A stretch of DNA of 64,000 bases from Stigmatella erecta. Its GTDB lineage: Bacteria > Myxococcota > Myxococcia > Myxococcales > Myxococcaceae. Of this stretch, positions 6,542 to 57,962 are shown piece after piece (the stretch's first letter is position 1; each line of letters starts with the position of its first letter). The notes under the pieces are model-generated. The model was given only the letters and a program-made list of their open reading frames with translations, was not told the origin of the DNA and did no database searches. The stretch lies in assembly GCF_900111745.1 (NCBI RefSeq), contig NZ_FOIJ01000013.1, positions 1 to 64,000 on the forward strand. The letters run 5' to 3'. Made by a program: the position numbers and the translations under genes.

Positions 6542-7900
6542 ATGCAGGTTCGTGCGAGGAGTGCACCCACCCTGGCGGAGCCGCGGACGCCGTTGACGGT
6601 GGAGGACACGGTCCCCTCCGAGTCCGGGAGCTGGCGCCGCTCGCTGGCGCGGGAGGTGCCCATCGCCGAGCTGCAGCAGAAGTTCGGCTGGACGGAGGGA
6701 AGCTGGCAGGCGGAGCTGCTCCAGGCGGCGGATGGCGCCGCCACATCGCCCGCGTCCCGGCGGGGCAACGGCAGCGTGTCGGCGGCGGAGGTGAACCGGT
6801 ACCTGGCCGAGCCCGGGGACGGCCGCTTCCTCACCTCGGAGGCGGTGCAACAGCAGCGCGGGGCGCTGGAGCAGCGGCTGACGGGCAGGGCCCGCTCCGT
6901 GGACGTGGATGCCTTCGACACGGGCTGGCAGGAGACGGTGGCGCGCCGGGCGGATCAGCTCGGCAACGCGAACGGAAAGCTGACGCGCGCGGAGCTGAAC
7001 ACCTTCCTCACGGACGTGAAGGCGGGGAAGGTGGAGGACACGGCGTGGGTGCCGGACCAGCAGCAGGCGGTGTTCGAGAGCAAGGTGGCCGAGAGCGCCG
7101 GCGAGGCGGATCCGCTGCGGCCCACGGGGGGGGAGGGGGGCGTGGCGCTGGTGAAGGAATACATGCGCCTGTCGATGGACGAGGCGAAGAACGTGCCCAC
7201 CTTCGTGAGCTACCTCGTGTCGGCGGCGGACCTCCAGGAGACGCCGGTGGACGTCTCGCGCGAGAAGAGCCACTTCCGGAAGGACCCGGCGCTGGGGGAG
7301 GCGGGGGTGGCGGCCACGGACTACACGGGCTCGGGCTTCGACCGGGGCCACATGAAGCCGGCGGAGGGCTCGCCCACGCAGGAGGCGATGGACGAGAGCC
7401 ACCTGATGAGCAACGTAGCGCCGCAGCACCCGGACCTGAACCGGCAGGCGTGGCGCACGCTGGAAGACGCGGTGAATGACCTGGTGCAGGCCTCGGGGGG
7501 CAAGGCCCACATCGTTACCGGGAACCTGTACCTGAACGCCCAGGGCAAACCGCTGCCGCCGGAGGCGCTCGAGACGTTGGGAACGAACGCACGGCGCATC
7601 GCGGTGCCCACGCACCAGTTCAAGTCGGTGCTGCTGGAGCTGCCCAACGGCAACCTGAGCATGTTCGCGTACATGGTACCCAACGTGAAGGACGCGCCGA
7701 CGAAGAAGGAGGACATCACCCCCTTCCTGGAGGCCTCGCGCACCTCGGTGGATGCCCTGGAGGCACTGCTTGGCCAGGACCTGTACGCCCAGCTGCCCGG
7801 GTCCCTGCAGGCGAAGCTGGAGTCGGACGCGGCGGCGCGCATCGCCTTCCAGCGCTCCAGCCGGTACGAGGCGGCCTCCCTGTTGTGGCCCGGACAGTGA
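6542..7900 (+). CDS. NUC1/EndoG-type DNA/RNA non-specific endonuclease
   Basis: A 452-residue protein. The central and C-terminal part (about residues 200-420) is a beta-beta-alpha-metal nuclease of the Serratia nuclease/EndoG family. The active-site motif FDRGHMKPAEGS sits near residue 270 (catalytic His in DRGH), followed by SHLMSNVAPQHPDLNRQAW, which contains the metal-ligand Asn. Known relatives cut single- and double-stranded DNA and RNA with Mg2+. The first 170 residues contain two EF-hand-like helix-loop-helix stretches (around GNGSVSAAEVNRYL and NANGKLTRAELNTFL), suggesting calcium dependence. No signal peptide is evident at the ATG, so export, if any, is non-classical. The next gene is a secreted monooxygenase. 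Confidence 0.87.
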   Translation: MQVRARSAPTLAEPRTPLTVEDTVPSESGSWRRSLAREVPIAELQQKFGWTEGSWQAELLQAADGAATSPASRRGNGSVSAAEVNRYLAEPGDGRFLTSEAVQQQRGALEQRLTGRARSVDVDAFDTGWQETVARRADQLGNANGKLTRAELNTFLTDVKAGKVEDTAWVPDQQQAVFESKVAESAGEADPLRPTGGEGGVALVKEYMRLSMDEAKNVPTFVSYLVSAADLQETPVDVSREKSHFRKDPALGEAGVAATDYTGSGFDRGHMKPAEGSPTQEAMDESHLMSNVAPQHPDLNRQAWRTLEDAVNDLVQASGGKAHIVTGNLYLNAQGKPLPPEALETLGTNARRIAVPTHQFKSVLLELPNGNLSMFAYMVPNVKDAPTKKEDITPFLEASRTSVDALEALLGQDLYAQLPGSLQAKLESDAAARIAFQRSSRYEAASLLWPGQ

Positions 7901-22148: not shown

Positions 22149-23105
22149 TTAGCCCCGCCGGGCGAGCTGGGCCGCCTTGAGCAGCGCTTCCACCATGGGC
22201 ACGCGGTTCGCCTGGCCCTTGCCCGCGATGTCATACGCGGTGCCGTGGTCCGGCGAGGTGCGCGGCACGGGCAGCCCCAGCGTCACGTTCACCGTGCGCT
22301 CGAAGTCCAGCGCCTTGGCCGGGATGAGCCCCTGGTCGTGGTACATCGCCAGCACCGCGTCATAGGGGATGGCATCCGGCCGCGCGAAGAGCCCGTCCGC
22401 GGGCACGGGCCCGTGCGCATCCACCCGCGCCGCGCGCGCCCGGCGGATGGCGGGGGTGAGCACCTCCACCTCCTCGCGCCCCAGCAGGCCTCCCTCGCCG
22501 GCGTGCGGGTTGAGCCCCAGCACGGCGATCCGGGGCCTGCGCCCCACCACGGGCGTGAGCGAGCGCGACAGCAGCTTGAGCTGCGCGGTGAGCCTCTCCA
22601 CCGTGAGCAGTTGGGAGAGTGCCGAGATCGGCACATGGTTGGTGGCCAGCGCCACGCGCACGCGCGGCCCGTCCATCATCATCATCACCTCCACGCCGAA
22701 GGCCTCCGCCAGCACCTCGGTGTGGCCCATGAAGGGGATGCCCGCGCGCGAAATCTGCTCCTTGGACACCGGCGCGGTGCACAGCGCGTCCACCTGGCCG
22801 TTTCGCGCCGCCTCGATGGCCGCGGTGACGTAGGCGTACTGGGCCCGGCCGCCCTCCCGCGTGGGCTGGCCCGGCACCCGGTCCTTCTCCGCAAGCTGCG
22901 TCACCACGCACACCGTGGGGCCCGTCACCCGGCCCAGCGTCTGGGGCGTGGCGCGCGCGTACCGGGCGAAGAGGGGGAAGCGCTCCAGCGTGGGCCCGTC
23001 GCCGAACACCACCGGCACCAGCGCCTGGCGCACCCGGGGCAGCGCCAGCGCCGCCGCCGTCACCTCCGGGCCAATGCCCGACACGTCCCCCAGGGAGATG
23101 CCCAC
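22149..23105 (-). CDS. pdxA: 4-hydroxythreonine-4-phosphate dehydrogenase (PdxA)
   Basis: A vitamin B6 biosynthesis enzyme oxidising 4-phosphohydroxy-L-threonine with NAD(P). Family motifs are clear: VGISLGDVSGIGPEV at the start, ALCTAPVSKEQISRAG, PFMGHTEVLAE (metal His), GLNPHAGEGG, AMYHDQGLIPAKAL and SPDHGTAYDIAGKG. The start is unusual: no ATG exists upstream in frame. The GTG at 23105 would begin directly at the first strand; a CTG at 23135 overlapping the surA stop is an alternative. The 318 residues from the GTG are near the usual size. It is last in an operon with two parvulin-type foldases, an arrangement (surA-pdxA) also common in Gammaproteobacteria. Confidence 0.92.
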   Translation of the reverse strand: MGISLGDVSGIGPEVTAAALALPRVRQALVPVVFGDGPTLERFPLFARYARATPQTLGRVTGPTVCVVTQLAEKDRVPGQPTREGGRAQYAYVTAAIEAARNGQVDALCTAPVSKEQISRAGIPFMGHTEVLAEAFGVEVMMMMDGPRVRVALATNHVPISALSQLLTVERLTAQLKLLSRSLTPVVGRRPRIAVLGLNPHAGEGGLLGREEVEVLTPAIRRARAARVDAHGPVPADGLFARPDAIPYDAVLAMYHDQGLIPAKALDFERTVNVTLGLPVPRTSPDHGTAYDIAGKGQANRVPMVEALLKAAQLARRG

Positions 23106-39552: not shown

Positions 39553-41067
39553 ATGCAGACGGCATCGGTCCCGAAAGAAAGCGCCGACAGCTCGGCGCCG
39601 TCGCGCGAGCCCAACAAGGCTGCCGCCGTGGCAGAGGCCCCCCGGGTCTTTGTCGCGCCGATGCGGACCTCGAAGCCGGTGCGCGGGCGCCTGGCACCGG
39701 GCTTCGCCGCGAAGCTGAACCTGTTGGCGGACCTGGCCTGGGTGGTGGTGGCGCTCCTGGGCTCTACGCTGCTGGCGGGGCACTCGCTGCAGCTGGCCAA
39801 CCTGGACTTCTGGCTGCTCTTGGGCGTGGCGGGGCTGGGCTGGCTGCTGGTGGGCACCACGCTGTGCCTGTACGACGCGCGCTTCTCGGACCGGGCGCCG
39901 CTGGATGATCTGGCGCTCACCTCCATCACGGTGGTGGTGATTACCGGGGTGCTCTACCTGGAGCGGCTGCTGATCGCCGGGGGCATGCCGGTGGTGGCGC
40001 TGACGTTCTTCCCGCTGATGCTGTGGACGGGCGTGGTGACGCTGCGCCACCTGGTGTTCCGCCGCCTGGCGGTGCGCGAGGAGCCGCTGGACGAGGCGCT
40101 CATCCTGGGCATCGGCGCCATGGGCCGGCTCACCGGCGAGCACCTGGCCGAGCACGGGCGGCGCCGGGTGTGCGGCTACCTGGCCTTCAGCAACGAGGTG
40201 CAGGGCCCCAGCTCCCCGCAGAACGTGCTGGGCAAGGCGGAGCGCCTGGAGGAGGTGCTCTGCCAGGTTCCCGTGGATGTCGTCTACATCTCCGGCAACG
40301 TGCAGAAGCACGGCACCGAGATGCAGGCGGCCATCAAGCTGTGCGAGAAGTTCGGCATTCCCTTCGCGCTGCCGGCGCACCCGTTCCGCATGGACCGGGC
40401 GCGCCCCGAGCACGGCCACGCGGTGGCCGACGGCTACCTGCACTTCGTCACGCACGCGCCCCAGCCGCACCAGATGGCCATCAAGCGCCTGTTCGACATC
40501 ACCTCGTCCTCGGCGGCGCTGCTGGTGCTCTCGCCGCTGATGCTGATGGTGGCGCTGCTCATCAAGCTCACCTCGCGCGGGCCGGTGCTCTTCAAGCAGA
40601 AGCGCGTGGGGCTGCACGGCAAGCCCTTCAGCATGCTGAAGTTCCGCTCCATGGTGGTGAACGCCGAGGAGCTCAAGACGCGCCTGGAGGCGATGAACGA
40701 GCAGACCGGGCCGGTGTTCAAGATCAAGAATGATCCGCGCATCACCCGCGTGGGGCGCTTCATCCGCAAGTACTCCATCGACGAGCTGCCCCAGCTGCTC
40801 AACGTGCTGCGCGGGGAGATGAGCGTGGTGGGCCCCCGGCCGCCCTTGCCCAACGAGGTGGCCAAGTACGCGGCCTGGCAGCGCCGGAGGCTGTCGGTGC
40901 GGCCCGGGCTCACCTGCATCTGGCAGGTGTCGGGGCGCAATCAGATCACCTTCGACGAGTGGATGTACCTGGACATGCAGTACATCGACCACTGGACGCT
41001 GCGCACCGACCTGGACCTCATCCTGAAGACGGTCCCGGTGGTGCTCACCGGCAGCGGGGCCAGCTAG
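39553..41067 (+). CDS. epsZ: Polyisoprenyl-phosphate hexose-1-phosphate transferase EpsZ
   Basis: This enzyme starts exopolysaccharide synthesis by placing the first sugar phosphate on undecaprenyl phosphate at the inner membrane. It has 504 residues: about four N-terminal helices (about 55-170), a CoA_binding_3-like domain (EALILGIGAMGRLTGEHLAEHG), a fifth helix (LLVLSPLMLMVALLIKL) and the catalytic bacterial sugar-transferase domain (KRLFDITSSSAALL, FKQKRVGLHGKPFSMLKFRSM, SIDELPQLLNVLRGEMSVVGPRPPL, RPGLTCIWQVSGR). This is the WbaP/WcaJ type. Position ahead of Wzx, OPX and barrel genes matches M. xanthus EpsZ (MXAN_7415 from memory). It has a good GGGGAGG ribosome site. Confidence 0.92.
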   Translation: MQTASVPKESADSSAPSREPNKAAAVAEAPRVFVAPMRTSKPVRGRLAPGFAAKLNLLADLAWVVVALLGSTLLAGHSLQLANLDFWLLLGVAGLGWLLVGTTLCLYDARFSDRAPLDDLALTSITVVVITGVLYLERLLIAGGMPVVALTFFPLMLWTGVVTLRHLVFRRLAVREEPLDEALILGIGAMGRLTGEHLAEHGRRRVCGYLAFSNEVQGPSSPQNVLGKAERLEEVLCQVPVDVVYISGNVQKHGTEMQAAIKLCEKFGIPFALPAHPFRMDRARPEHGHAVADGYLHFVTHAPQPHQMAIKRLFDITSSSAALLVLSPLMLMVALLIKLTSRGPVLFKQKRVGLHGKPFSMLKFRSMVVNAEELKTRLEAMNEQTGPVFKIKNDPRITRVGRFIRKYSIDELPQLLNVLRGEMSVVGPRPPLPNEVAKYAAWQRRRLSVRPGLTCIWQVSGRNQITFDEWMYLDMQYIDHWTLRTDLDLILKTVPVVLTGSGAS

Positions 41068-42736: not shown

Positions 42737-43378
42737 ATGAGCCGTTCGAATCTCTCCGCGCTGTCCGTGTCCCGCAGCCCCGCAGGGTGGGTCCTGCTGC
42801 TGCTGCTGCCCATGCTCGTGGGCGGCTGCTACCGGCCGGGCCGCTTCACCTGGGTGGATGACTACCGCGCGCCCCCGTCGCTCCAGGACGAGGGCTACAT
42901 CATCCGCCGGGGAGACCTGCTGAACATCAACGTCTGGAACCAGCGCGAGCTGTCCGCGGACACGCTCGTGCGCGAGGACGGCCGCATCACCCTGGCGCTG
43001 CTCAACGACGTGGACGCCGCGGGCGTCACCCCGCCGGTGCTGGCGCGGCGGCTGGAGGAGCTCTTCAAGCCCATGGTGAACAACCCCGTCGTCTCGGTGC
43101 GCATCTCCCGGCCCGAGCCGCTCAAGGTGGCCGTGCTGGGCGAGGTGAAGAGCCCGGGCATGAAGGAGCTGGCCCCCGAGTCCGGCGTGCTGCACGCGCT
43201 CGCGCAGGCGGGCGGCTTCACGGACTACGCCCAGCTCGACGGCATCTTCGTGCTGCGGCAGCAGCCGGACTCCCCGCTGCCGGTGCGCATCCGCTTCGAC
43301 TACGAGGCCATCTCCCGCACGCGCGGCAAGGGGGCCTCCTTCCTCCTGCGCACCGGCGACGTGGTGGTGGTGGAGTAG
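42737..43378 (+). CDS. epsY: Short OPX lipoprotein EpsY
   Basis: A 213-residue outer-membrane polysaccharide export (OPX) protein. Its lipoprotein signal (LLLLLPMLVGGC) is followed by a Poly_export domain (YIIRRGDLLNINVWNQRELSADTLVREDGRITLALLNDVDAAG) and one SLBB domain (VAVLGEVKSPGMKELAPESG, ALAQAGGFTDYAQLDGIFVLR). It lacks the C-terminal amphipathic helix domain with which Wza crosses the outer membrane, so it cannot form the pore alone. Work on M. xanthus describes EpsY with the adjacent EpsX barrel as a composite translocon, and this gene pair fits that model. The ATG at 42737 is chosen because the longer frame is the antiparallel shadow of wzx. Confidence 0.92.
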   Translation: MSRSNLSALSVSRSPAGWVLLLLLPMLVGGCYRPGRFTWVDDYRAPPSLQDEGYIIRRGDLLNINVWNQRELSADTLVREDGRITLALLNDVDAAGVTPPVLARRLEELFKPMVNNPVVSVRISRPEPLKVAVLGEVKSPGMKELAPESGVLHALAQAGGFTDYAQLDGIFVLRQQPDSPLPVRIRFDYEAISRTRGKGASFLLRTGDVVVVE

Positions 43379-43382
43379 GCGC

Positions 43383-44597
43383 ATGGCGACGCTCCTGCCC
43401 GCGCTGGTGACGGGGCTCGTGCTGGCCAGCTCACCGGCCATCCGCTACTCGAGCGCGTTCCGGGCGGAGACGTTCGTGCGCACCCCGGGCCTGGCGGAGC
43501 GGGCGGACCGCTCGGTGCTGGAGGACGTGGTGCTCACGCCCCGGGGGCAGGCCATCCTCTACACGCCGCGGCTGGAGGTGAAGGCCATCCTCGAGCCGCA
43601 GTTCATGCTGCGCCGCACCCTGTCCCAGCCCACGCTGGAGGTGCTCACCTTCTTCTTCCTCCGGGGCGAGTACCAGCTGCGGCGCGGGCTGAAGGTCTGG
43701 GCCATGGAGTCGGCCACCTACGGCACCTTCCCCTTCGAGGACTTCCGCGTGCCGGCCCCCGTGAGCGGCGGCGGGGACCGGCTGCTGGACGCCAACCGCT
43801 ACATCTACGCGGAGACCATGGCGGGCGTGGATGTGACGGGGATCCGGCGCACCTACATCGGCGCGTATGTGGCCTATGTCATCAACGGCCTGTTGGATCC
43901 GCCCACCACCATCCGCACCCGGAGCGAGACGGACCGCGTCACCCCGGCCCAGTACAGCGTGGAGCTGCGCGCGCAGGCGTTCCACTCGCTCACGCGCCGC
44001 TTCGTGCTGGGGCTGCACCTGTACGGGCGGGACGTGGACTTCTCCACGGGCGCGCGGCTCACCCAGCTCCAGTCCACCCAGGTGACGCAGTACCAGTTCC
44101 ACCCGCTCGTCCAGGGCAAGCTGGAGCTGGGCGTGGCGGTGGGCGAGCGCTTGCCGCAGCGCGACGAGTTCTCCGGGCTCAAGCCATTCCTGCTCCAGCC
44201 CATGGGGGATGTCTCGCTCACGGTGCCGGTGCCGGTGGGCTACCACTGGCCGGTGCAGGCCAAGCTGTCGGCCCGGTACGTGCCCTACATCAGCCCGTTC
44301 ACCACCATCGTCTACCCTCGCAGGGAGCAGGCCGTGGCCCTGGAGTGGAAGGGCCGGCGCCAGGCCCAGGTGAACCTGGAGATGGCCCTGGCCCAGTCGG
44401 CGACGCGGGGCTTCCACGAGCCCGACGGCGAGGAGCGCGTCACCCTCAAGTTCCAATGGCCGCTTACTCGCACCTCGGCCGTGGTGGCGTCTGGCCGACT
44501 CTTGAGGCTGCGAGAATTTCTGATCTCCGACGACCCCCTCTATAAGTGGTTTGCGGGCGTCGGATTGGTGATTCGCCAGGAGAATGGTAGGCTTTAA
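43383..44597 (+). CDS. epsX: Outer-membrane beta-barrel EpsX
   Basis: A 404-residue exported protein, 4 bp after epsY. The signal peptide is short (MATLLPALVTGLVLASSPA). The rest shows regular alternating strands with aromatic girdles (LEVLTFFFLRGEYQLRRGLKVWAMES, TYIGAYVAYVINGLL, FVLGLHLYGRDVDFS, VTLKFQWPLTRTSAVVASG), compatible with about 18 strands. It does not end in Phe or Trp. No OPX or peptidoglycan-binding motif is present. Position and size match M. xanthus EpsX (MXAN_7418 from memory), the barrel half of the composite OPX/beta-barrel exporter for EPS. Confidence 0.85.
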   Translation: MATLLPALVTGLVLASSPAIRYSSAFRAETFVRTPGLAERADRSVLEDVVLTPRGQAILYTPRLEVKAILEPQFMLRRTLSQPTLEVLTFFFLRGEYQLRRGLKVWAMESATYGTFPFEDFRVPAPVSGGGDRLLDANRYIYAETMAGVDVTGIRRTYIGAYVAYVINGLLDPPTTIRTRSETDRVTPAQYSVELRAQAFHSLTRRFVLGLHLYGRDVDFSTGARLTQLQSTQVTQYQFHPLVQGKLELGVAVGERLPQRDEFSGLKPFLLQPMGDVSLTVPVPVGYHWPVQAKLSARYVPYISPFTTIVYPRREQAVALEWKGRRQAQVNLEMALAQSATRGFHEPDGEERVTLKFQWPLTRTSAVVASGRLLRLREFLISDDPLYKWFAGVGLVIRQENGRL

Positions 44598-44615: not shown

Positions 44616-44789
44616 ATGAAGAAGTTCCTGCTGCTGTCGGTGCTGTACGCATTGGTCGTGCTTCCGGGCGTGGCGGCCCGGGAGCGTCACCCGGTTCGAG
44701 GCCTCAAGAAAGCCATCGCGCTGATGGTCCTCTTCAACCTCTGTTACGCGTTCGCCGTGCTCGTCATCTGGCCGCAGATGGACGACTGA
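44616..44789 (+). CDS. 57-residue membrane protein of the eps operon
   Basis: A short ORF missed by length filters. The ATG is 18 bp after epsX. It encodes a helix at the start (MKKFLLLSVLYALVVLPGVAA), a basic stretch (RERHPVRGLKK) and a second helix (AIALMVLFNLCYAFAVLVIW), ending QMDD. Third positions are mostly G or C. It sits exactly between epsX and the response regulator, where I think M. xanthus also has a small gene (MXAN_7419). Probably a small inner-membrane subunit or assembly factor of the exopolysaccharide machine; function unknown. Confidence 0.68.
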   Translation: MKKFLLLSVLYALVVLPGVAARERHPVRGLKKAIALMVLFNLCYAFAVLVIWPQMDD

Positions 44790-44818
44790 CCTGAAGGAGA
44801 GGAGCCGGAATCCCCCGT

Positions 44819-45243
44819 ATGGACGCCTCGCAACGAACGGTCCTGGTGGTCGAGGACTCTCCCTGTTCCGCAAGATGGTGGGGGAGTTTCTTCACGCCCT
44901 GGGCATCGAGCGCGTCCTGGAGGCCTCCAACGGCCGGGCGGCCATGGAGTTCCTGGCCGCGGGGAGGCCCGACCTGGTGTGCCTGGATCTGACCCTGCCT
45001 GACGTGTCGGGGTACGACTTGTGCGAATACATCCGGGGCACCAAAGCGTTGGCGACGGTGCCAGTACTGATGATCAGCGCGAGAGGCACCTTATTGGACC
45101 GGGCACAGGCCGAGGAAGTCGGTGCGGATGGCTACTTGACCAAGCCTTTTTCGCAAGACGAGTTTAACCAGCAAGTCCTGTCCATGTTGGCCAGAAACGT
45201 GAAGGCTCTACCGGGTGGAGGGAAGAACGATGCCCGCACCTGA
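44819..45243 (+). CDS. epsW: Stand-alone response regulator EpsW (frameshifted in this sequence)
   Basis: A single receiver domain. The ATG at 44819 opens MDASQRTVLVVEDSP, which contains the acidic pocket. After the CCC at 44861-44863 the frame is wrong; one extra C restores LFRKMVGEFLHALGIERVLEASN. That second frame, open from 44875, has the phosphorylatable Asp in LVCLDLTLPDVSGYDL, the Ser/Thr in MISARG and the Lys in LTKPFSQDEF. The domain is complete if the frameshift is a sequencing error and would be inactive if real. In M. xanthus EpsW is a response regulator within the eps locus. The last 14 bp overlap the epsV start. Confidence 0.72.
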
Positions 45244-46726
45244 GGAGCGGCTGCCGGAGGTGGAGCGCCAGCAGGCGCAGCTCTTCGACTGGGAGCAGCT
45301 GCGCGACTACTTCGGCTACGTGAAGAGCGCGGTGAAGCGCCACCGGTGGCTGGTGCTGGGCACGTTCCTCATCACCGCCGGGCTGGGCCTGGCGGCGGCG
45401 AAGCTCCTGCCGCGCACCTGGTACGCGGAGACGAAGCTCCTGCCGCGGCGCGCCTCGGCCATCGCCGCGCTGGTGAACCCCGAGCGGCCGAACCTGCTCA
45501 ACCCGGATCCGCCCAACCCCATGCGCCCGGCCAACGAGGTGGACGCGCCCACCAAGGCGGCCGCCGAGGCCGTGCTGCGCCGCGACAACCTGGTGTCGCT
45601 GGTGAAGAAGCTGAACCTGCTCGACCGCTGGGAGGCCACGCGGCCGCCGCTTTTGCGCGCCAAGGACACGGTCATGCGCATGCTCACCGCCCCGCCGGAC
45701 GAGGATGCGCGCATGGACGGCATGGTGGGCGTGCTGGAGAAGAAGCTCTCGGTGGGCACCAACGACGGCAAGGTGACCATCGGGGTGGAGTGGGGCGACC
45801 CGCAGCTGGCCTACGAGCTGGTGGACGCGGCGCAGCAGAGCTTCCTCCATGCGCGCGAGCGCGAGGAAGTCTCCAGCATCGACGACGCCATCACCATCCT
45901 GGAGGAGCACGAGCGCCAGGCGGCCGAGGCGGTGAAGCTCTCCTACGACGAGTTCGAGAAAACGTTCTCGGCCATCATGCTGGAGCGCCGGCGCGTGGTG
46001 GGCGACCCGCGGCTCATTCCGCGCTTCTCCTCCACGGACCAGGAGCTGGCGCAGCTGCGCTTCCTCATCCGGGCCAAGCGCCGCGCCATCGCGGACGCGC
46101 AGGTGCAGCACAACCAGCGCGTGACGGAGATGCAGGACGACCTGGCACAGAAGCGCGAGATGTACGCGCCGGACCACCCCTCGGTGGTGGAGCTGGAGGG
46201 CCGGGTGGCCTCGCTGCGCCAGGGCTCGCCGCAGGTGAAGGCGCTGGTGGGCGAGGAGAAGGAGATGCTGGCCGAGTACGCGGACCTGGGCGGCAAGTCG
46301 CTGCCGTTCCCGGACGAGCCGGTGCCGGACCCGTACGGCCTGGAGCGCGTGCTGATGGGGCTTCTGCCCGCCATCTCGGAGAACCCGAGCGCGGCGGTGT
46401 CCCTGGAGCAGCTGCGCAGCCGGCTGAGCGCGCAGCAGCAGATCCTCAAGCGCATCGACTCGGCGAAGCTCGAGCGCAACATCGCCATGCGCTCGTTCAA
46501 GTACCGCTTCACGCTGCTCACGCCGGCCGAGTTCCCCAAGAAGCCCATCAAGCCCAACGCGCTCGTCATCTCCCTGGGCGCGGTGGTGGCGGGCCTGGTG
46601 CTGGGGGTGTTCGCGGCGCTGGCGCGCGACGTGCTCAGCGGGCGGGTGCTGGAGAGCTGGCAGGTGGAGCGCGGCCTGGGCCTGCCGGTGCTGGCGGAGC
46701 TGGACCGCCGTCCGGGCGGACTGTGA
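45230..46726 (+). CDS. epsV: Polysaccharide co-polymerase (Wzz/PCP) EpsV
   Basis: A 498-residue chain-length and export protein of the inner membrane. The N-terminal Wzz helix (about residues 32-60; HRWLVLGTFLITAGLGLAAAKLLPRTWYAETKLLP) leads into a large periplasmic, coiled-coil-rich region (about 65-425; AITILEEHERQAAEAVKLSYDEFEKTF, DDLAQKREMYAPDHPSVVELEGRVASL). The C-terminal helix (NALVISLGAVVAGLVLGVFAALARDVL) follows the Pro-rich PAEFPKKPIKP motif. The cytoplasmic tyrosine kinase of Wzc-type proteins is absent, so this is a PCP-2 without kinase. The ATG at 45230 has a GGAGGGAAG site and is preferred over the GTG at 45215. Confidence 0.9.
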   Translation: MPAPEERLPEVERQQAQLFDWEQLRDYFGYVKSAVKRHRWLVLGTFLITAGLGLAAAKLLPRTWYAETKLLPRRASAIAALVNPERPNLLNPDPPNPMRPANEVDAPTKAAAEAVLRRDNLVSLVKKLNLLDRWEATRPPLLRAKDTVMRMLTAPPDEDARMDGMVGVLEKKLSVGTNDGKVTIGVEWGDPQLAYELVDAAQQSFLHAREREEVSSIDDAITILEEHERQAAEAVKLSYDEFEKTFSAIMLERRRVVGDPRLIPRFSSTDQELAQLRFLIRAKRRAIADAQVQHNQRVTEMQDDLAQKREMYAPDHPSVVELEGRVASLRQGSPQVKALVGEEKEMLAEYADLGGKSLPFPDEPVPDPYGLERVLMGLLPAISENPSAAVSLEQLRSRLSAQQQILKRIDSAKLERNIAMRSFKYRFTLLTPAEFPKKPIKPNALVISLGAVVAGLVLGVFAALARDVLSGRVLESWQVERGLGLPVLAELDRRPGGL

Positions 46727-46756: not shown

Positions 46757-47950
46757 ATGATGGTGATGGACGCGCTGCTGCTCGTGCTCGGGCTGCCGGT
46801 GGGCGTGGGGTGCGGCTACCTGCTGCTGCTCACGCTCCTGTCGGCGGGCAAGGCGGCCCCCGCGCGCGGGGGCTCCCCGCGCAAGTTCGATCTCATCGTC
46901 CCCGCGCACAACGAGGAGGCGGGCATCGCCAGCACGGTGGCGAACCTGTCCGCGCTGGACTACCCGGTGGCGCAGCGGCGCATCCTCGTGGTGGCGGACA
47001 ACTGCTCGGACGCCACGGCGGACCGGGCGCGCGAGGCGGGGGCCACGGTGCTGGTGCGCCACGACACCGAGCGCCGCGGCAAGGGCTACGCGCTGGAGCT
47101 GGCCTTCGCGCAGAGCCTGAAGGATGGCTTCGCCGACGCGGTGGTGGTGGTGGACGCGGACACGCACGTCTCCCCGCACCTGCTGCAGTCCTTCGCCCAG
47201 CGGCTGGATGCGGGCGCGCAGGCGCTCCAGGCGCACTACGGCGTGCTCAACCCGCATGCCTCGTGGCGCACGCGGCTGATGACCATTGCCCTGGCGCTGT
47301 TCCACAAGGTGCGCTCCATGGGGCGCGAGCGGCTGGGCGTCTCCTGCGGCCTGCGCGGCAACGGCATGTGCTTCACCCACCGCGTCATCCGCGAGGTGCC
47401 GCACGAGGCGTTCTCCATCGTGGAGGACCTGGAGTACGGCATCCGCCTGGGGCGCGCCGGGCACCGCGTGCACTACGTGTGGGAGGCGGACGTGCTCGGG
47501 GAGATGGTGTCCTCGGAGAAGGCCTCGCGCTCGCAGCGCCGCCGGTGGGAGGGTGGCCGGTGGGCGATGACGAAGCAGTTCGGCGTGCCGCTCCTGGGCG
47601 AGGCGCTGCGCAAGCGCGACGGGGTGCTGCTGGACCTGGCCATGGACCTGCTGGTGCCGCCGCTGAGCTACGTGGTGCTGGGCGCCGGGGGGCTCACGGT
47701 GGCCGCGGGGGCGCTCTCGGCGTGGCAGGGGCAGGTGGCCCTCTCCGCGCTGCTGGCGGCCTTCTGCGTGGGCAGCCTGGGGCTGTACGTGCTGCGCGGC
47801 TGGTGGGTGTCGGGCATGGGCGCGCGCGGGCTGATGGACCTGGGGCGGGCGCCCTTCTACGTGGTGTGGAAGCTGTGGCTGGTGCTGAGCCGGCCGCAGG
47901 AGAAGAAGGGGGAGTGGGTGCGGACCACCCGTGAAGCGCGCAAGCCCTGA
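46757..47950 (+). CDS. epsU: Membrane glycosyltransferase family 2 (EpsU-like)
   Basis: A 397-residue GT-A enzyme. An N-terminal helix (ALLLVLGLPVGVGCGYLLLL) is followed by the GT2 domain: FDLIVPAHNEEAGIASTV, the DxD in AVVVVDADTHVS, the acceptor loop GLRGNGMCFTHRVI, FSIVEDLEYGIRLG (catalytic acid) and the QRRRWEGGR motif. C-terminal helices span the membrane. It matches EpsU of the M. xanthus eps locus in position. Probably adds a sugar to the lipid-linked repeat on the cytoplasmic side. The ribosome site GGGGG precedes the ATG. Confidence 0.9.
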   Translation: MMVMDALLLVLGLPVGVGCGYLLLLTLLSAGKAAPARGGSPRKFDLIVPAHNEEAGIASTVANLSALDYPVAQRRILVVADNCSDATADRAREAGATVLVRHDTERRGKGYALELAFAQSLKDGFADAVVVVDADTHVSPHLLQSFAQRLDAGAQALQAHYGVLNPHASWRTRLMTIALALFHKVRSMGRERLGVSCGLRGNGMCFTHRVIREVPHEAFSIVEDLEYGIRLGRAGHRVHYVWEADVLGEMVSSEKASRSQRRRWEGGRWAMTKQFGVPLLGEALRKRDGVLLDLAMDLLVPPLSYVVLGAGGLTVAAGALSAWQGQVALSALLAAFCVGSLGLYVLRGWWVSGMGARGLMDLGRAPFYVVWKLWLVLSRPQEKKGEWVRTTREARKP

Positions 47951-56482: not shown

Positions 56483-57962
56483 TAAGCCGGGTCCTGGGCC
56501 TGGGCTTCACGCTTGATGGGAGGGTCCCGAGGCACTCGGGCTCTCCCCTGGCCCGGGCGGCGCTCAGGGGTGGCTGCCTGGCTCGGAGGTGGGGGGGCGG
56601 CGGTGCGGGTTGGAGCACCGGGCCGTAGCACTGGCTCGTGAAGACATAGCCACTCCCCTCGCAGTCTTCGCGTTCCAGGCTGAGCCGGATCCAGCAGCCT
56701 CCATTGAGGGCGAGTTGCCCCTGGCGAGGACACCGGCCCTTCGCATCAGGGGTGGCCTGTCCTGGCCTTGGTGGGGGCAACGTGTCCGTGGACATTACCT
56801 CGGGCACCGAGGCGTCCGGGGGATCCACCGGGGGCATCCGCGACAGGGCATCGCCCAGGCCTACCGTGTCCGAATCTTCCTGGCTGGACGCTCCAGCCTC
56901 TGTCCAGGAGAAGGAGGGCCGTACCTGGGTCCTGCCACGGATCTCCCAGCCTATCCAGGCAGAGAGCATCAGGAGCATCGTGGCTGCCGCGAACCTGGGC
57001 CACAGAGGGCTCCTGCGTGGGGAGGTCTGTGTACCGGTGCGTTCGTGCGGTGACGCGGGTGCGCGCTGGCGAGCGAGCTGCTCCAACGCTTCCGCCAGCT
57101 CCTTCGCGGTTCCCCGGTCCTCGGGATGAACCCGGAGCATCCGGACGATCAGCGCGTTGAGCTGGGGATCGAGGCCCGGGACGATGGCAGCGGGAGCGGG
57201 GGAGGCCATCTCCCCCAACTGCCAGGTGCCCTGCTCATCCCTGAACGGGTCGCTCAGCTCCGGGTACGTGCCGGTGACGAGCCGGTACGCCGTGACGCCC
57301 AGGGCGTAGAGGTCATCCGAGGGCGTGTCTTCATACCGGGCAGCGGGCTCCCACATGTATCGCAGCGAGAACAGCGAGGACTCCGCGGAGCGGTAGGCCG
57401 GGGTGCCCGTGAACGCCCCCGGCGGCGTCAGGGTGGCCGCCCCCGGGTGGATGCCCGAGCCGAAGTCCGTGAGCATCGCGCGCTGATCCGCGTGCCGCAC
57501 CAGGACATTTCCACCCTTCACGTCCCGGTGCACGGCGCCCTGCGCATGAAGGGCCTCCAGGGCGCGGGCGAGCTGGGCCAGCACCCGGACCCCCTGTTCT
57601 TCAGAGGGGGCGTGCTTCTGGGCCCAGTCATAGAGCGGAGTGCCGTCCACCCACTCCATGACAAGGTAGGGATGCGTGGTGCCGGCGGGATGCTGCCACT
57701 CACCGGCATCCAGCAGGCGCGGGACACTTGGGTGGTTCACGCGGGAGAGCAACTCGGCCTCTCGTGAGAACCGAGGATCCCATGGCAGCAGGGCCAGCTT
57801 AAGGGCCACGGGAGTGGAGGGTGCTTCACCCGCCCGGACCGCACGGTAGACGGCCCCATGGACGCCGTGGCCTGCTGGTCCCATCACGCGCCAAGGGCCT
57901 ACCGCCGATCCTGGGCGGAGCCATCCCGGGAGTGGTGTGGAAGCGTGATTCTGTTGGGTCAC
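56208..57962 (-). CDS. Membrane Ser/Thr protein kinase (probable frameshifted tail)
   Basis: A Hanks-type kinase. The Gly-rich loop is GPAGHGVHGAVYRAV and ATP Lys55 is in VALKLAL. The catalytic loop is AVHRDVKGGNVLV and the metal loop LTDFGSGIH, with activation segment GTPAYRSAESSLFSLRY. One membrane helix (about residues 322-340) follows. The extracytoplasmic tail is Pro-rich and ends with a Cys pair (GGCWIRLSLEREDCEGSGY... CYGP). In this sequence the frame continues after a run of seven G (56591-56597) into an Arg/Pro-rich tail to 56208. Removing one base gives PPTSEPGSHP and a stop at 56564, an ending of the kind I recall for myxobacterial kinases of this group. The true end is probably 56564. 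Confidence 0.8.
   Translation of the reverse strand: MTQQNHASTPLPGWLRPGSAVGPWRVMGPAGHGVHGAVYRAVRAGEAPSTPVALKLALLPWDPRFSREAELLSRVNHPSVPRLLDAGEWQHPAGTTHPYLVMEWVDGTPLYDWAQKHAPSEEQGVRVLAQLARALEALHAQGAVHRDVKGGNVLVRHADQRAMLTDFGSGIHPGAATLTPPGAFTGTPAYRSAESSLFSLRYMWEPAARYEDTPSDDLYALGVTAYRLVTGTYPELSDPFRDEQGTWQLGEMASPAPAAIVPGLDPQLNALIVRMLRVHPEDRGTAKELAEALEQLARQRAPASPHERTGTQTSPRRSPLWPRFAAATMLLMLSAWIGWEIRGRTQVRPSFSWTEAGASSQEDSDTVGLGDALSRMPPVDPPDASVPEVMSTDTLPPPRPGQATPDAKGRCPRQGQLALNGGCWIRLSLEREDCEGSGYVFTSQCYGPVLQPAPPPPHLRARQPPLSAARARGEPECLGTLPSSVKPRPRTRLIKERRRTSSRYCPRTSTHPGGRLSRWYSLARTYGWCRRPYRKTPHRGQAQERTRSRWGTTPAQHRGCNCTPASRCSRPCSSPKDTPRPHRK

What the first reader, a model, noticed from the sequence alone, without database searches (positions are those of the whole stretch)
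44819..45243. EpsW response regulator split by a one-base frameshift
The sequence up to CCC at 44861-44863 encodes VLVVEDSP. One additional C gives a perfect continuation into the rest of the receiver. Either the exopolysaccharide operon has lost a regulator in this strain or the sequence has a homopolymer error.
Basis: seen in the sequence. Interest (0 to 1): 0.55.

Follow-up and report, generated by a model that had tools for sequence, protein, structure and literature searches.

The report
Broken regulator gene for slime production
In this soil myxobacterium the gene for EpsW, the switch that turns on exopolysaccharide (slime) production, is out of frame by one base compared with its close relatives, so it is either a very recent mutation in the sequenced strain or a single error in its assembly; either way it is an ordinary broken copy of a known gene.

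Summary
From ATG 44819 the window encodes MDASQRTVLVVEDSP; after CCC 44861-44863 the receiver continues in another frame, open to 45243. Read literally, the gene makes 15 EpsW residues plus 42 unrelated ones and stops at TGA 44990. The 7 closest relatives all have an intact 141- or 142-residue gene and one more base here. Family-wide, 79 of 80 match rows begin at EpsW residue 1-6; only this genome's begins at 15, so homologs starting only at 44875 are excluded. The next best match in this genome is 43% identical. The neighbouring eps genes and a Dif-like cluster are open. After the break, the 4 substitutions assigned to this lineage are all silent, so the lesion is very recent or not real. Comparisons with G003 over about 180 kb, and with G004 and G005 over the window, showed no other clear mid-gene frame break in this genome, within limited sensitivity. 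Recent null mutation or isolated error: near even; reads are needed. Low novelty.

The parts
44819..44863 (+). epsW 5' part: codons 1-15 (MDASQRTVLVVEDSP), first strand and acidic pair of the receiver
   Evidence: aligned to intact genes; the role of the acidic pair is general knowledge of receivers
44861..44864 (+). site of the frame break: three C, where the 7 closest relatives have one more base at the aligned place
44864..44992 (+). out-of-frame tail of 42 codons ending in a premature TGA at 44990-44992
44864..45243 (+). rest of epsW in the shifted frame (open; first ATG 44875): phosphorylation aspartate region CLDLTLP and TKPF lysine present
39553..41067 (+). epsZ, initiating phosphoglycosyl transferase (PF02397), open; proposed target of EpsW in M. 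xanthus
   Evidence: PMC12802240
41184..42719 (+). wzx flippase, open
42737..43378 (+). epsY, OPX protein (PF02563, SLBB), open
43383..44597 (+). epsX (named by position), open
44616..44789 (+). 57-residue hydrophobic ORF between epsX and epsW, open; its sequence aligns in the 7 relatives
45230..46726 (+). epsV, polysaccharide co-polymerase (weak Wzz/GNVR matches below the Pfam cut-offs), open; overlaps the end of epsW by 14 bases
46757..47950 (+). epsU glycosyltransferase, open

Best explanation
This is epsW, the single-domain (CheY-like) response regulator of the eps exopolysaccharide cluster. It is one base short in a short C run, which breaks the frame after codon 15. Among the genomes compared this is private to this one, and it is very recent. 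I take it as slightly more likely to be a true null mutation of the sequenced strain than an error. Mechanism. Shown in sequence: translation from 44819 ends after 57 residues and no complete receiver can be read in one frame. Inferred: a product restarted at ATG 44875 would lack the first strand and the acidic pair that binds the metal, so it could not be phosphorylated. From work in M. xanthus (PMC4671073, PMC12802240): without EpsW, EPS and S-motility are lost while the Eps proteins measured keep their levels, and EpsW~P is proposed to activate EpsZ. Predicted here: an EPS-poor, S-motility-defective strain with an otherwise complete cluster. Loss of EPS through culture passage is a plausible but untested reason, for which I found no paper.
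For: Frame break confirmed. One base fewer than in 7 of 7 closest relatives, which all have an intact ORF. The only N-terminally cut match among 80 match rows in 78 of 96 family genomes. Next best own match 43% identical. epsZ to epsU open; Dif-like cluster with MCP, CheW, CheY, CheA and CheC open. Little sign of a noisy assembly: in 180,461 aligned bases against G003 there are 40 isolated non-triplet indels of 10 bases or fewer, and I saw no other clear mid-gene break in this genome. A scan with ORFs of G005 and G004 finds epsW from both as a frame switch with 97% and 96% identity after the break; the other switches it lists are of low identity or very short. The window (+ strand) holds 256 runs of exactly 4 C and 102 longer ones. 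M. xanthus: epsW deletion and D58A are EPS-minus.
Against: The gene after the break shows no decay: 8 silent and 1 replacement difference from G003, the replacement on the G003 branch, with 4 silent and 0 replacement changes on this branch. A wrong base count explains that just as well. The frame-break scans are of limited sensitivity: the filter did not flag epsW itself, because too little gene lies to its left, and three sites pass it only on the G003 side (3990, 14172, 181826; small counts, not settled). A two-base difference at 56612 alters the end of a minus-strand frame. No reads, no second assembly of the species and no phenotype could be checked.
Confidence: 0.52

Rival explanations
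1. Assembly or base-calling error: the strain has an intact epsW and one C was dropped from a short run in the consensus.
For: No decay after the break; intact in 7 of 7 closest relatives; the gene is needed for EPS in M. xanthus; the neighbouring genes are kept. In another genus of the family, draft contigs of 7 genomes end next to epsV or epsW, so assembly trouble in this gene pair does occur, though at a different place.
Against: The run is short, local GC is 61% and folding is no stronger than in shuffles (z 0.96). No other clear mid-gene frame break seen in this genome in the parts compared; random errors would fall mostly inside genes.
Confidence: 0.42
2. The gene still works in this form, by recoding at the C run or by restart at ATG 44875.
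For: The second frame is open and conserved.
Against: No slippery heptamer is visible at TCTCCCTG (inspection), and the 7 relatives read straight through. A restart product lacks residues 1-19, among them the acidic pair, and no family match row starts there. The 18 bases before 44875 show no obvious ribosome-binding sequence (inspection).
Confidence: 0.05
3. The lesion is part of wider decay of the exopolysaccharide pathway in this lineage.
For: EpsY has 6 silent and 13 replacement codon differences from G003.
Against: The cluster genes from epsZ to epsU are open and full length against G003. Silent/replacement codon differences are 22/5 for EpsX, 19/2 for EpsV and 36/13 for EpsZ.
Confidence: 0.01

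Closest known systems
EpsW (MXAN_7420) of Myxococcus xanthus
   Same: Single-domain receiver in the same place of the cluster: epsZ, wzx, epsY, then epsW, epsV, epsU (MXAN numbers 7415-7417 and 7420-7422 from passages; that epsX is MXAN_7418 is recalled).
   Different: The frame is broken after codon 15 here.
Intact EpsW of the nearest genome G003 (and G004, G005)
   Same: The post-break protein is 99% identical to that of G003.
   Different: One base more at the break, giving an unbroken 141-residue ORF.
DifD-like single-domain receiver in the same genome (G000:C11)
   Same: Same domain family; in M. xanthus DifD is the other receiver phosphorylated by DifE.
   Different: 33% identical to EpsW, in a chemosensory cluster, open; not a replacement on this evidence.

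Membership tests
EpsW orthologs (epsW of the myxobacterial eps cluster) | Best match of the genome to EpsW of close relatives | tested here: met
   98% identity over residues 15-141 of the G003 protein; next own hit 43%
EpsW orthologs (epsW of the myxobacterial eps cluster) | Position between epsX and epsV in the eps cluster | tested here: met
   M. xanthus gene numbers
EpsW orthologs (epsW of the myxobacterial eps cluster) | Complete receiver domain in one reading frame | tested here: not met
   from ATG 44875, profile positions 1-14 are missing
EpsW orthologs (epsW of the myxobacterial eps cluster) | Phosphorylated by DifE and required for EPS | not testable with these tools
   needs biochemistry; known for M. 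xanthus
Pseudogene by recent frame break | Frame break private to the lineage, relatives intact | tested here: met
   7 of 7 closest relatives intact; 79 of 80 family match rows begin at residue 1-6
Pseudogene by recent frame break | Relaxed constraint after the break | tested here: not met
   4 silent, 0 replacement changes on this branch; too recent or not real
Programmed frameshift gene | Shift conserved in relatives | tested here: not met
   0 of 7 relatives need a shift

The most novel reading that the evidence does not exclude
A natural strain with an open Dif-like cluster and eps cluster has just lost only the switch EpsW. It would be a natural test of whether EpsZ can ever act without EpsW, or of whether EPS loss is selected in culture.
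Probability: 0.3. Interest if true: 0.35.

Novelty: new member of a known kind. Interest (0 to 1): 0.15.

Why it matters
Mostly for annotation: the gene should be labelled epsW with a frame break, not a shorter regulator that starts at 44875, and surveys that pair EpsZ with EpsW should not score this genome as simply lacking the gene. If real, the strain is probably EPS-poor and a poor reference for social motility of its species.

Tried and rejected
Homologs starting at 44875: rejected by the family search. Close second copy: none above 43%. Programmed shift: not conserved. Generally noisy assembly: not supported. The scan, with lenient gap costs, gave many compensating pairs and a composition score that did not flag epsW, so I repeated it with stricter gaps, whose filter also misses epsW. 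In one search the clearest other mid-gene break lies in G003 (aligned to contig position 121783). Three sites pass the filter on the G003 side only (3990, 14172, 181826) and three more on the G000 side only (16400, 29164, 54404); counts are small and they are not settled. One search inspected frames at 21 indels of the first 104 kb of the contig; I judged all but epsW to be at gene edges or between genes, with a changed frame end at 56612. The other indels had only the filter.

One search used ORFs of G005 and G004 as queries on the window and gave 8 and 9 frame-switch pairs (on the G003 stretch, as control, 6 and 6). epsW is among them from both. The other pairs in the window have both members under 90% identity, except one 31-residue piece from G004 only (22158-22250). 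I take them as frames that are not genes, but looked closely only at the site near 33.42 kb, which both queries flag and where G003 has one more G: it lies between two divergent ORFs.

Second epsW lesion in G077: rejected as a probable assembly join. Missing epsW in G070, G072, G074, G076 and G080: their contigs end next to epsV, so absence is not shown.

My first translation used 44820 as start and gave a wrong stop; corrected. In one search I aligned minus-strand loci without turning them; that alignment is void and was redone. In one search a motif filter found the ORF in 10 of 17 loci (the 7 close ones and L017, L020, L022); not found were L009 (this genome) and L018, L019, L021, L023, L024, L025, where the filter, not the gene, may be at fault. 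Literature searches; one search gave nothing usable on EPS loss in culture (listing only). PMC12802240: abstract, introduction, one results section and found passages. PMC4671073: abstract, start of the introduction and the first of two parts of the results. PMC7484181: abstract start and found passages only. All other papers: listing only.

Full report
What is there. The window reads ATG at 44819-44821 and CCC at 44861-44863. From that ATG it encodes MDASQRTVLVVEDSP, then 42 unrelated residues, then TGA at 44990-44992. The rest of a response-regulator receiver is in another frame, open through ATG 44875 to the stop at 45241-45243. Pfam gives the part from 44875 PF00072 at 77.4 bits but only from profile position 15; the intact protein of the nearest genome, G003, gives 95.6 bits from position 1.

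What gene it is. The neighbours are a sugar-phosphate transferase (EpsZ-like), a flippase, an OPX protein (EpsY-like), an EpsX-like protein, a 57-residue ORF, then this gene, then an EpsV-like co-polymerase and a glycosyltransferase. This fits the order of M. xanthus MXAN_7415-7422, in which epsZ, wzx and epsY are 7415-7417, epsW is 7420, epsV 7421 and epsU 7422 (passages of PMC4671073 and PMC7484181). PMC7484181 names Stigmatella aurantiaca among genomes in which the two eps clusters are one. The EpsV match to Pfam is weak and below the curated cut-offs, so its name rests on position and on relatives. As to the organism: G006, of the same genus as the window's genome, has a contig of 525,431 bases, the same length as a contig named Hyalangium versicolor. 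G005 is 10,260,756 bases long, which I recall as the length of S. aurantiaca DW4/3-1; that is recall, not a result.

Comparison with relatives. A DNA search of 59 genomes, this one included, gave 26 with a match. The 7 closest other loci (G001-G006 and G020), properly oriented, align through the break and each has one more base there than this genome. All 7 have an intact ORF, six of 141 residues and one of 142. In 96 genomes of the family, this one included, 78 match the G003 protein at 1e-25, with 80 match rows. 79 rows begin at residue 1-6; the row of this genome begins at 15. Two other rows contain one in-frame stop, G033 and the second G017 row, both in matches that run to residue 136 or 137. 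One row (G077) stops at residue 77.

No close backup. In this genome the next best match to the post-break protein is 43% identical and lies in an open frame of 538 codons. A Dif-like cluster (MCP, CheW, CheY, CheA, CheC) is present with open frames in G000:C11. That it is the Dif system rests on gene content; I had no M. xanthus Dif sequence to compare.

How old. Between this genome and G003 the post-break codons differ 9 times: 8 silent and 1 replacement. With G004 and G005 as outgroups, 4 silent changes fall on this branch, the one replacement falls on the G003 branch, and 4 silent ones cannot be assigned. If changes were unconstrained, about a quarter would be silent, so four out of four would be unlikely. 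The break is therefore recent against the split from G003, or not real.

Is the assembly noisy? Over 180,461 aligned bases between this contig and G003, 145 indels were found, 103 not a multiple of three, 40 of them isolated and 10 bases or fewer; this genome is the shorter one in 25 of the 40. Frames were inspected at 21 such indels in the first 104 kb (from the alignment); I judged all but epsW to lie at gene edges or between genes. The rest had only the automatic filter, which also misses epsW and leaves a few weak sites unsettled. The clearest other mid-gene break belongs to G003. A second kind of scan, ORFs of G005 and G004 against the window, does find epsW from both, and no other switch of comparable identity and length. 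The one other coinciding site that I looked at closely, near 33.42 kb, is between genes. A further check: of 150 receiver matches listed for this genome (262 candidates, 150 scored), only epsW begins later than profile position 3. The site itself is not unusual in GC or folding. All this argues against a generally poor assembly but cannot exclude one wrong base.

How it would act. In M. xanthus, DifE phosphorylates EpsW, and an epsW deletion or D58A loses EPS and S-motility (PMC4671073). EpsW~P is proposed to activate EpsZ by direct contact, without significant change in transcripts or levels of the Eps proteins measured (PMC12802240). By inference the broken gene gives no phosphorylatable EpsW, so this strain would make little EPS if the sequence is true. 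epsV begins 14 bases before the end of epsW, so early termination could also lower epsV translation; that is untested.

Verdict. I put 0.52 on a true recent null, 0.42 on an error, 0.05 on a working product and 0.01 on wider decay. It is an ordinary broken allele of a known gene.

Noticed in passing
L150-L159 (G070, G072, G074, G076, G077, G079, G080, G084), compared with L160-L162: In one other genus of the family (g43), draft contigs of 7 genomes end at or near the epsW/epsV junction, where three complete genomes show a segment of 82-90% GC (60-base windows). L157 and L158 seem to carry sequencing-adapter remnants (motif recalled), and the truncated epsW of G077 looks like a false join. Missing epsW there is probably an artefact.
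   Followed up: partly
44616-44789: A 57-residue hydrophobic ORF between epsX and epsW whose sequence aligns in the 7 close relatives; no function assigned here.
   Followed up: no
42737-43378: epsY has more replacement (13) than silent (6) codon differences from G003, unlike epsX, epsV and epsZ.
   Followed up: no
44789-44791: A second one-base C-run difference from G003, just after the stop of the 57-residue ORF and outside genes; it cannot be polarised because G004 and G005 lack that stretch.
   Followed up: partly
G059 (one contig, 12,489,432 bases): No EpsW match at 1e-25, no EpsX at 1e-15 and no EpsV at 1e-30; only weak receiver matches. By recalled length this may be Archangium gephyra, the exception named in PMC12802240.
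   Followed up: partly
G003, at the place aligned to G000:C13 position 121783: G003 seems to have a one-base break in a frame that is 681 codons long and open in this genome.
   Followed up: no
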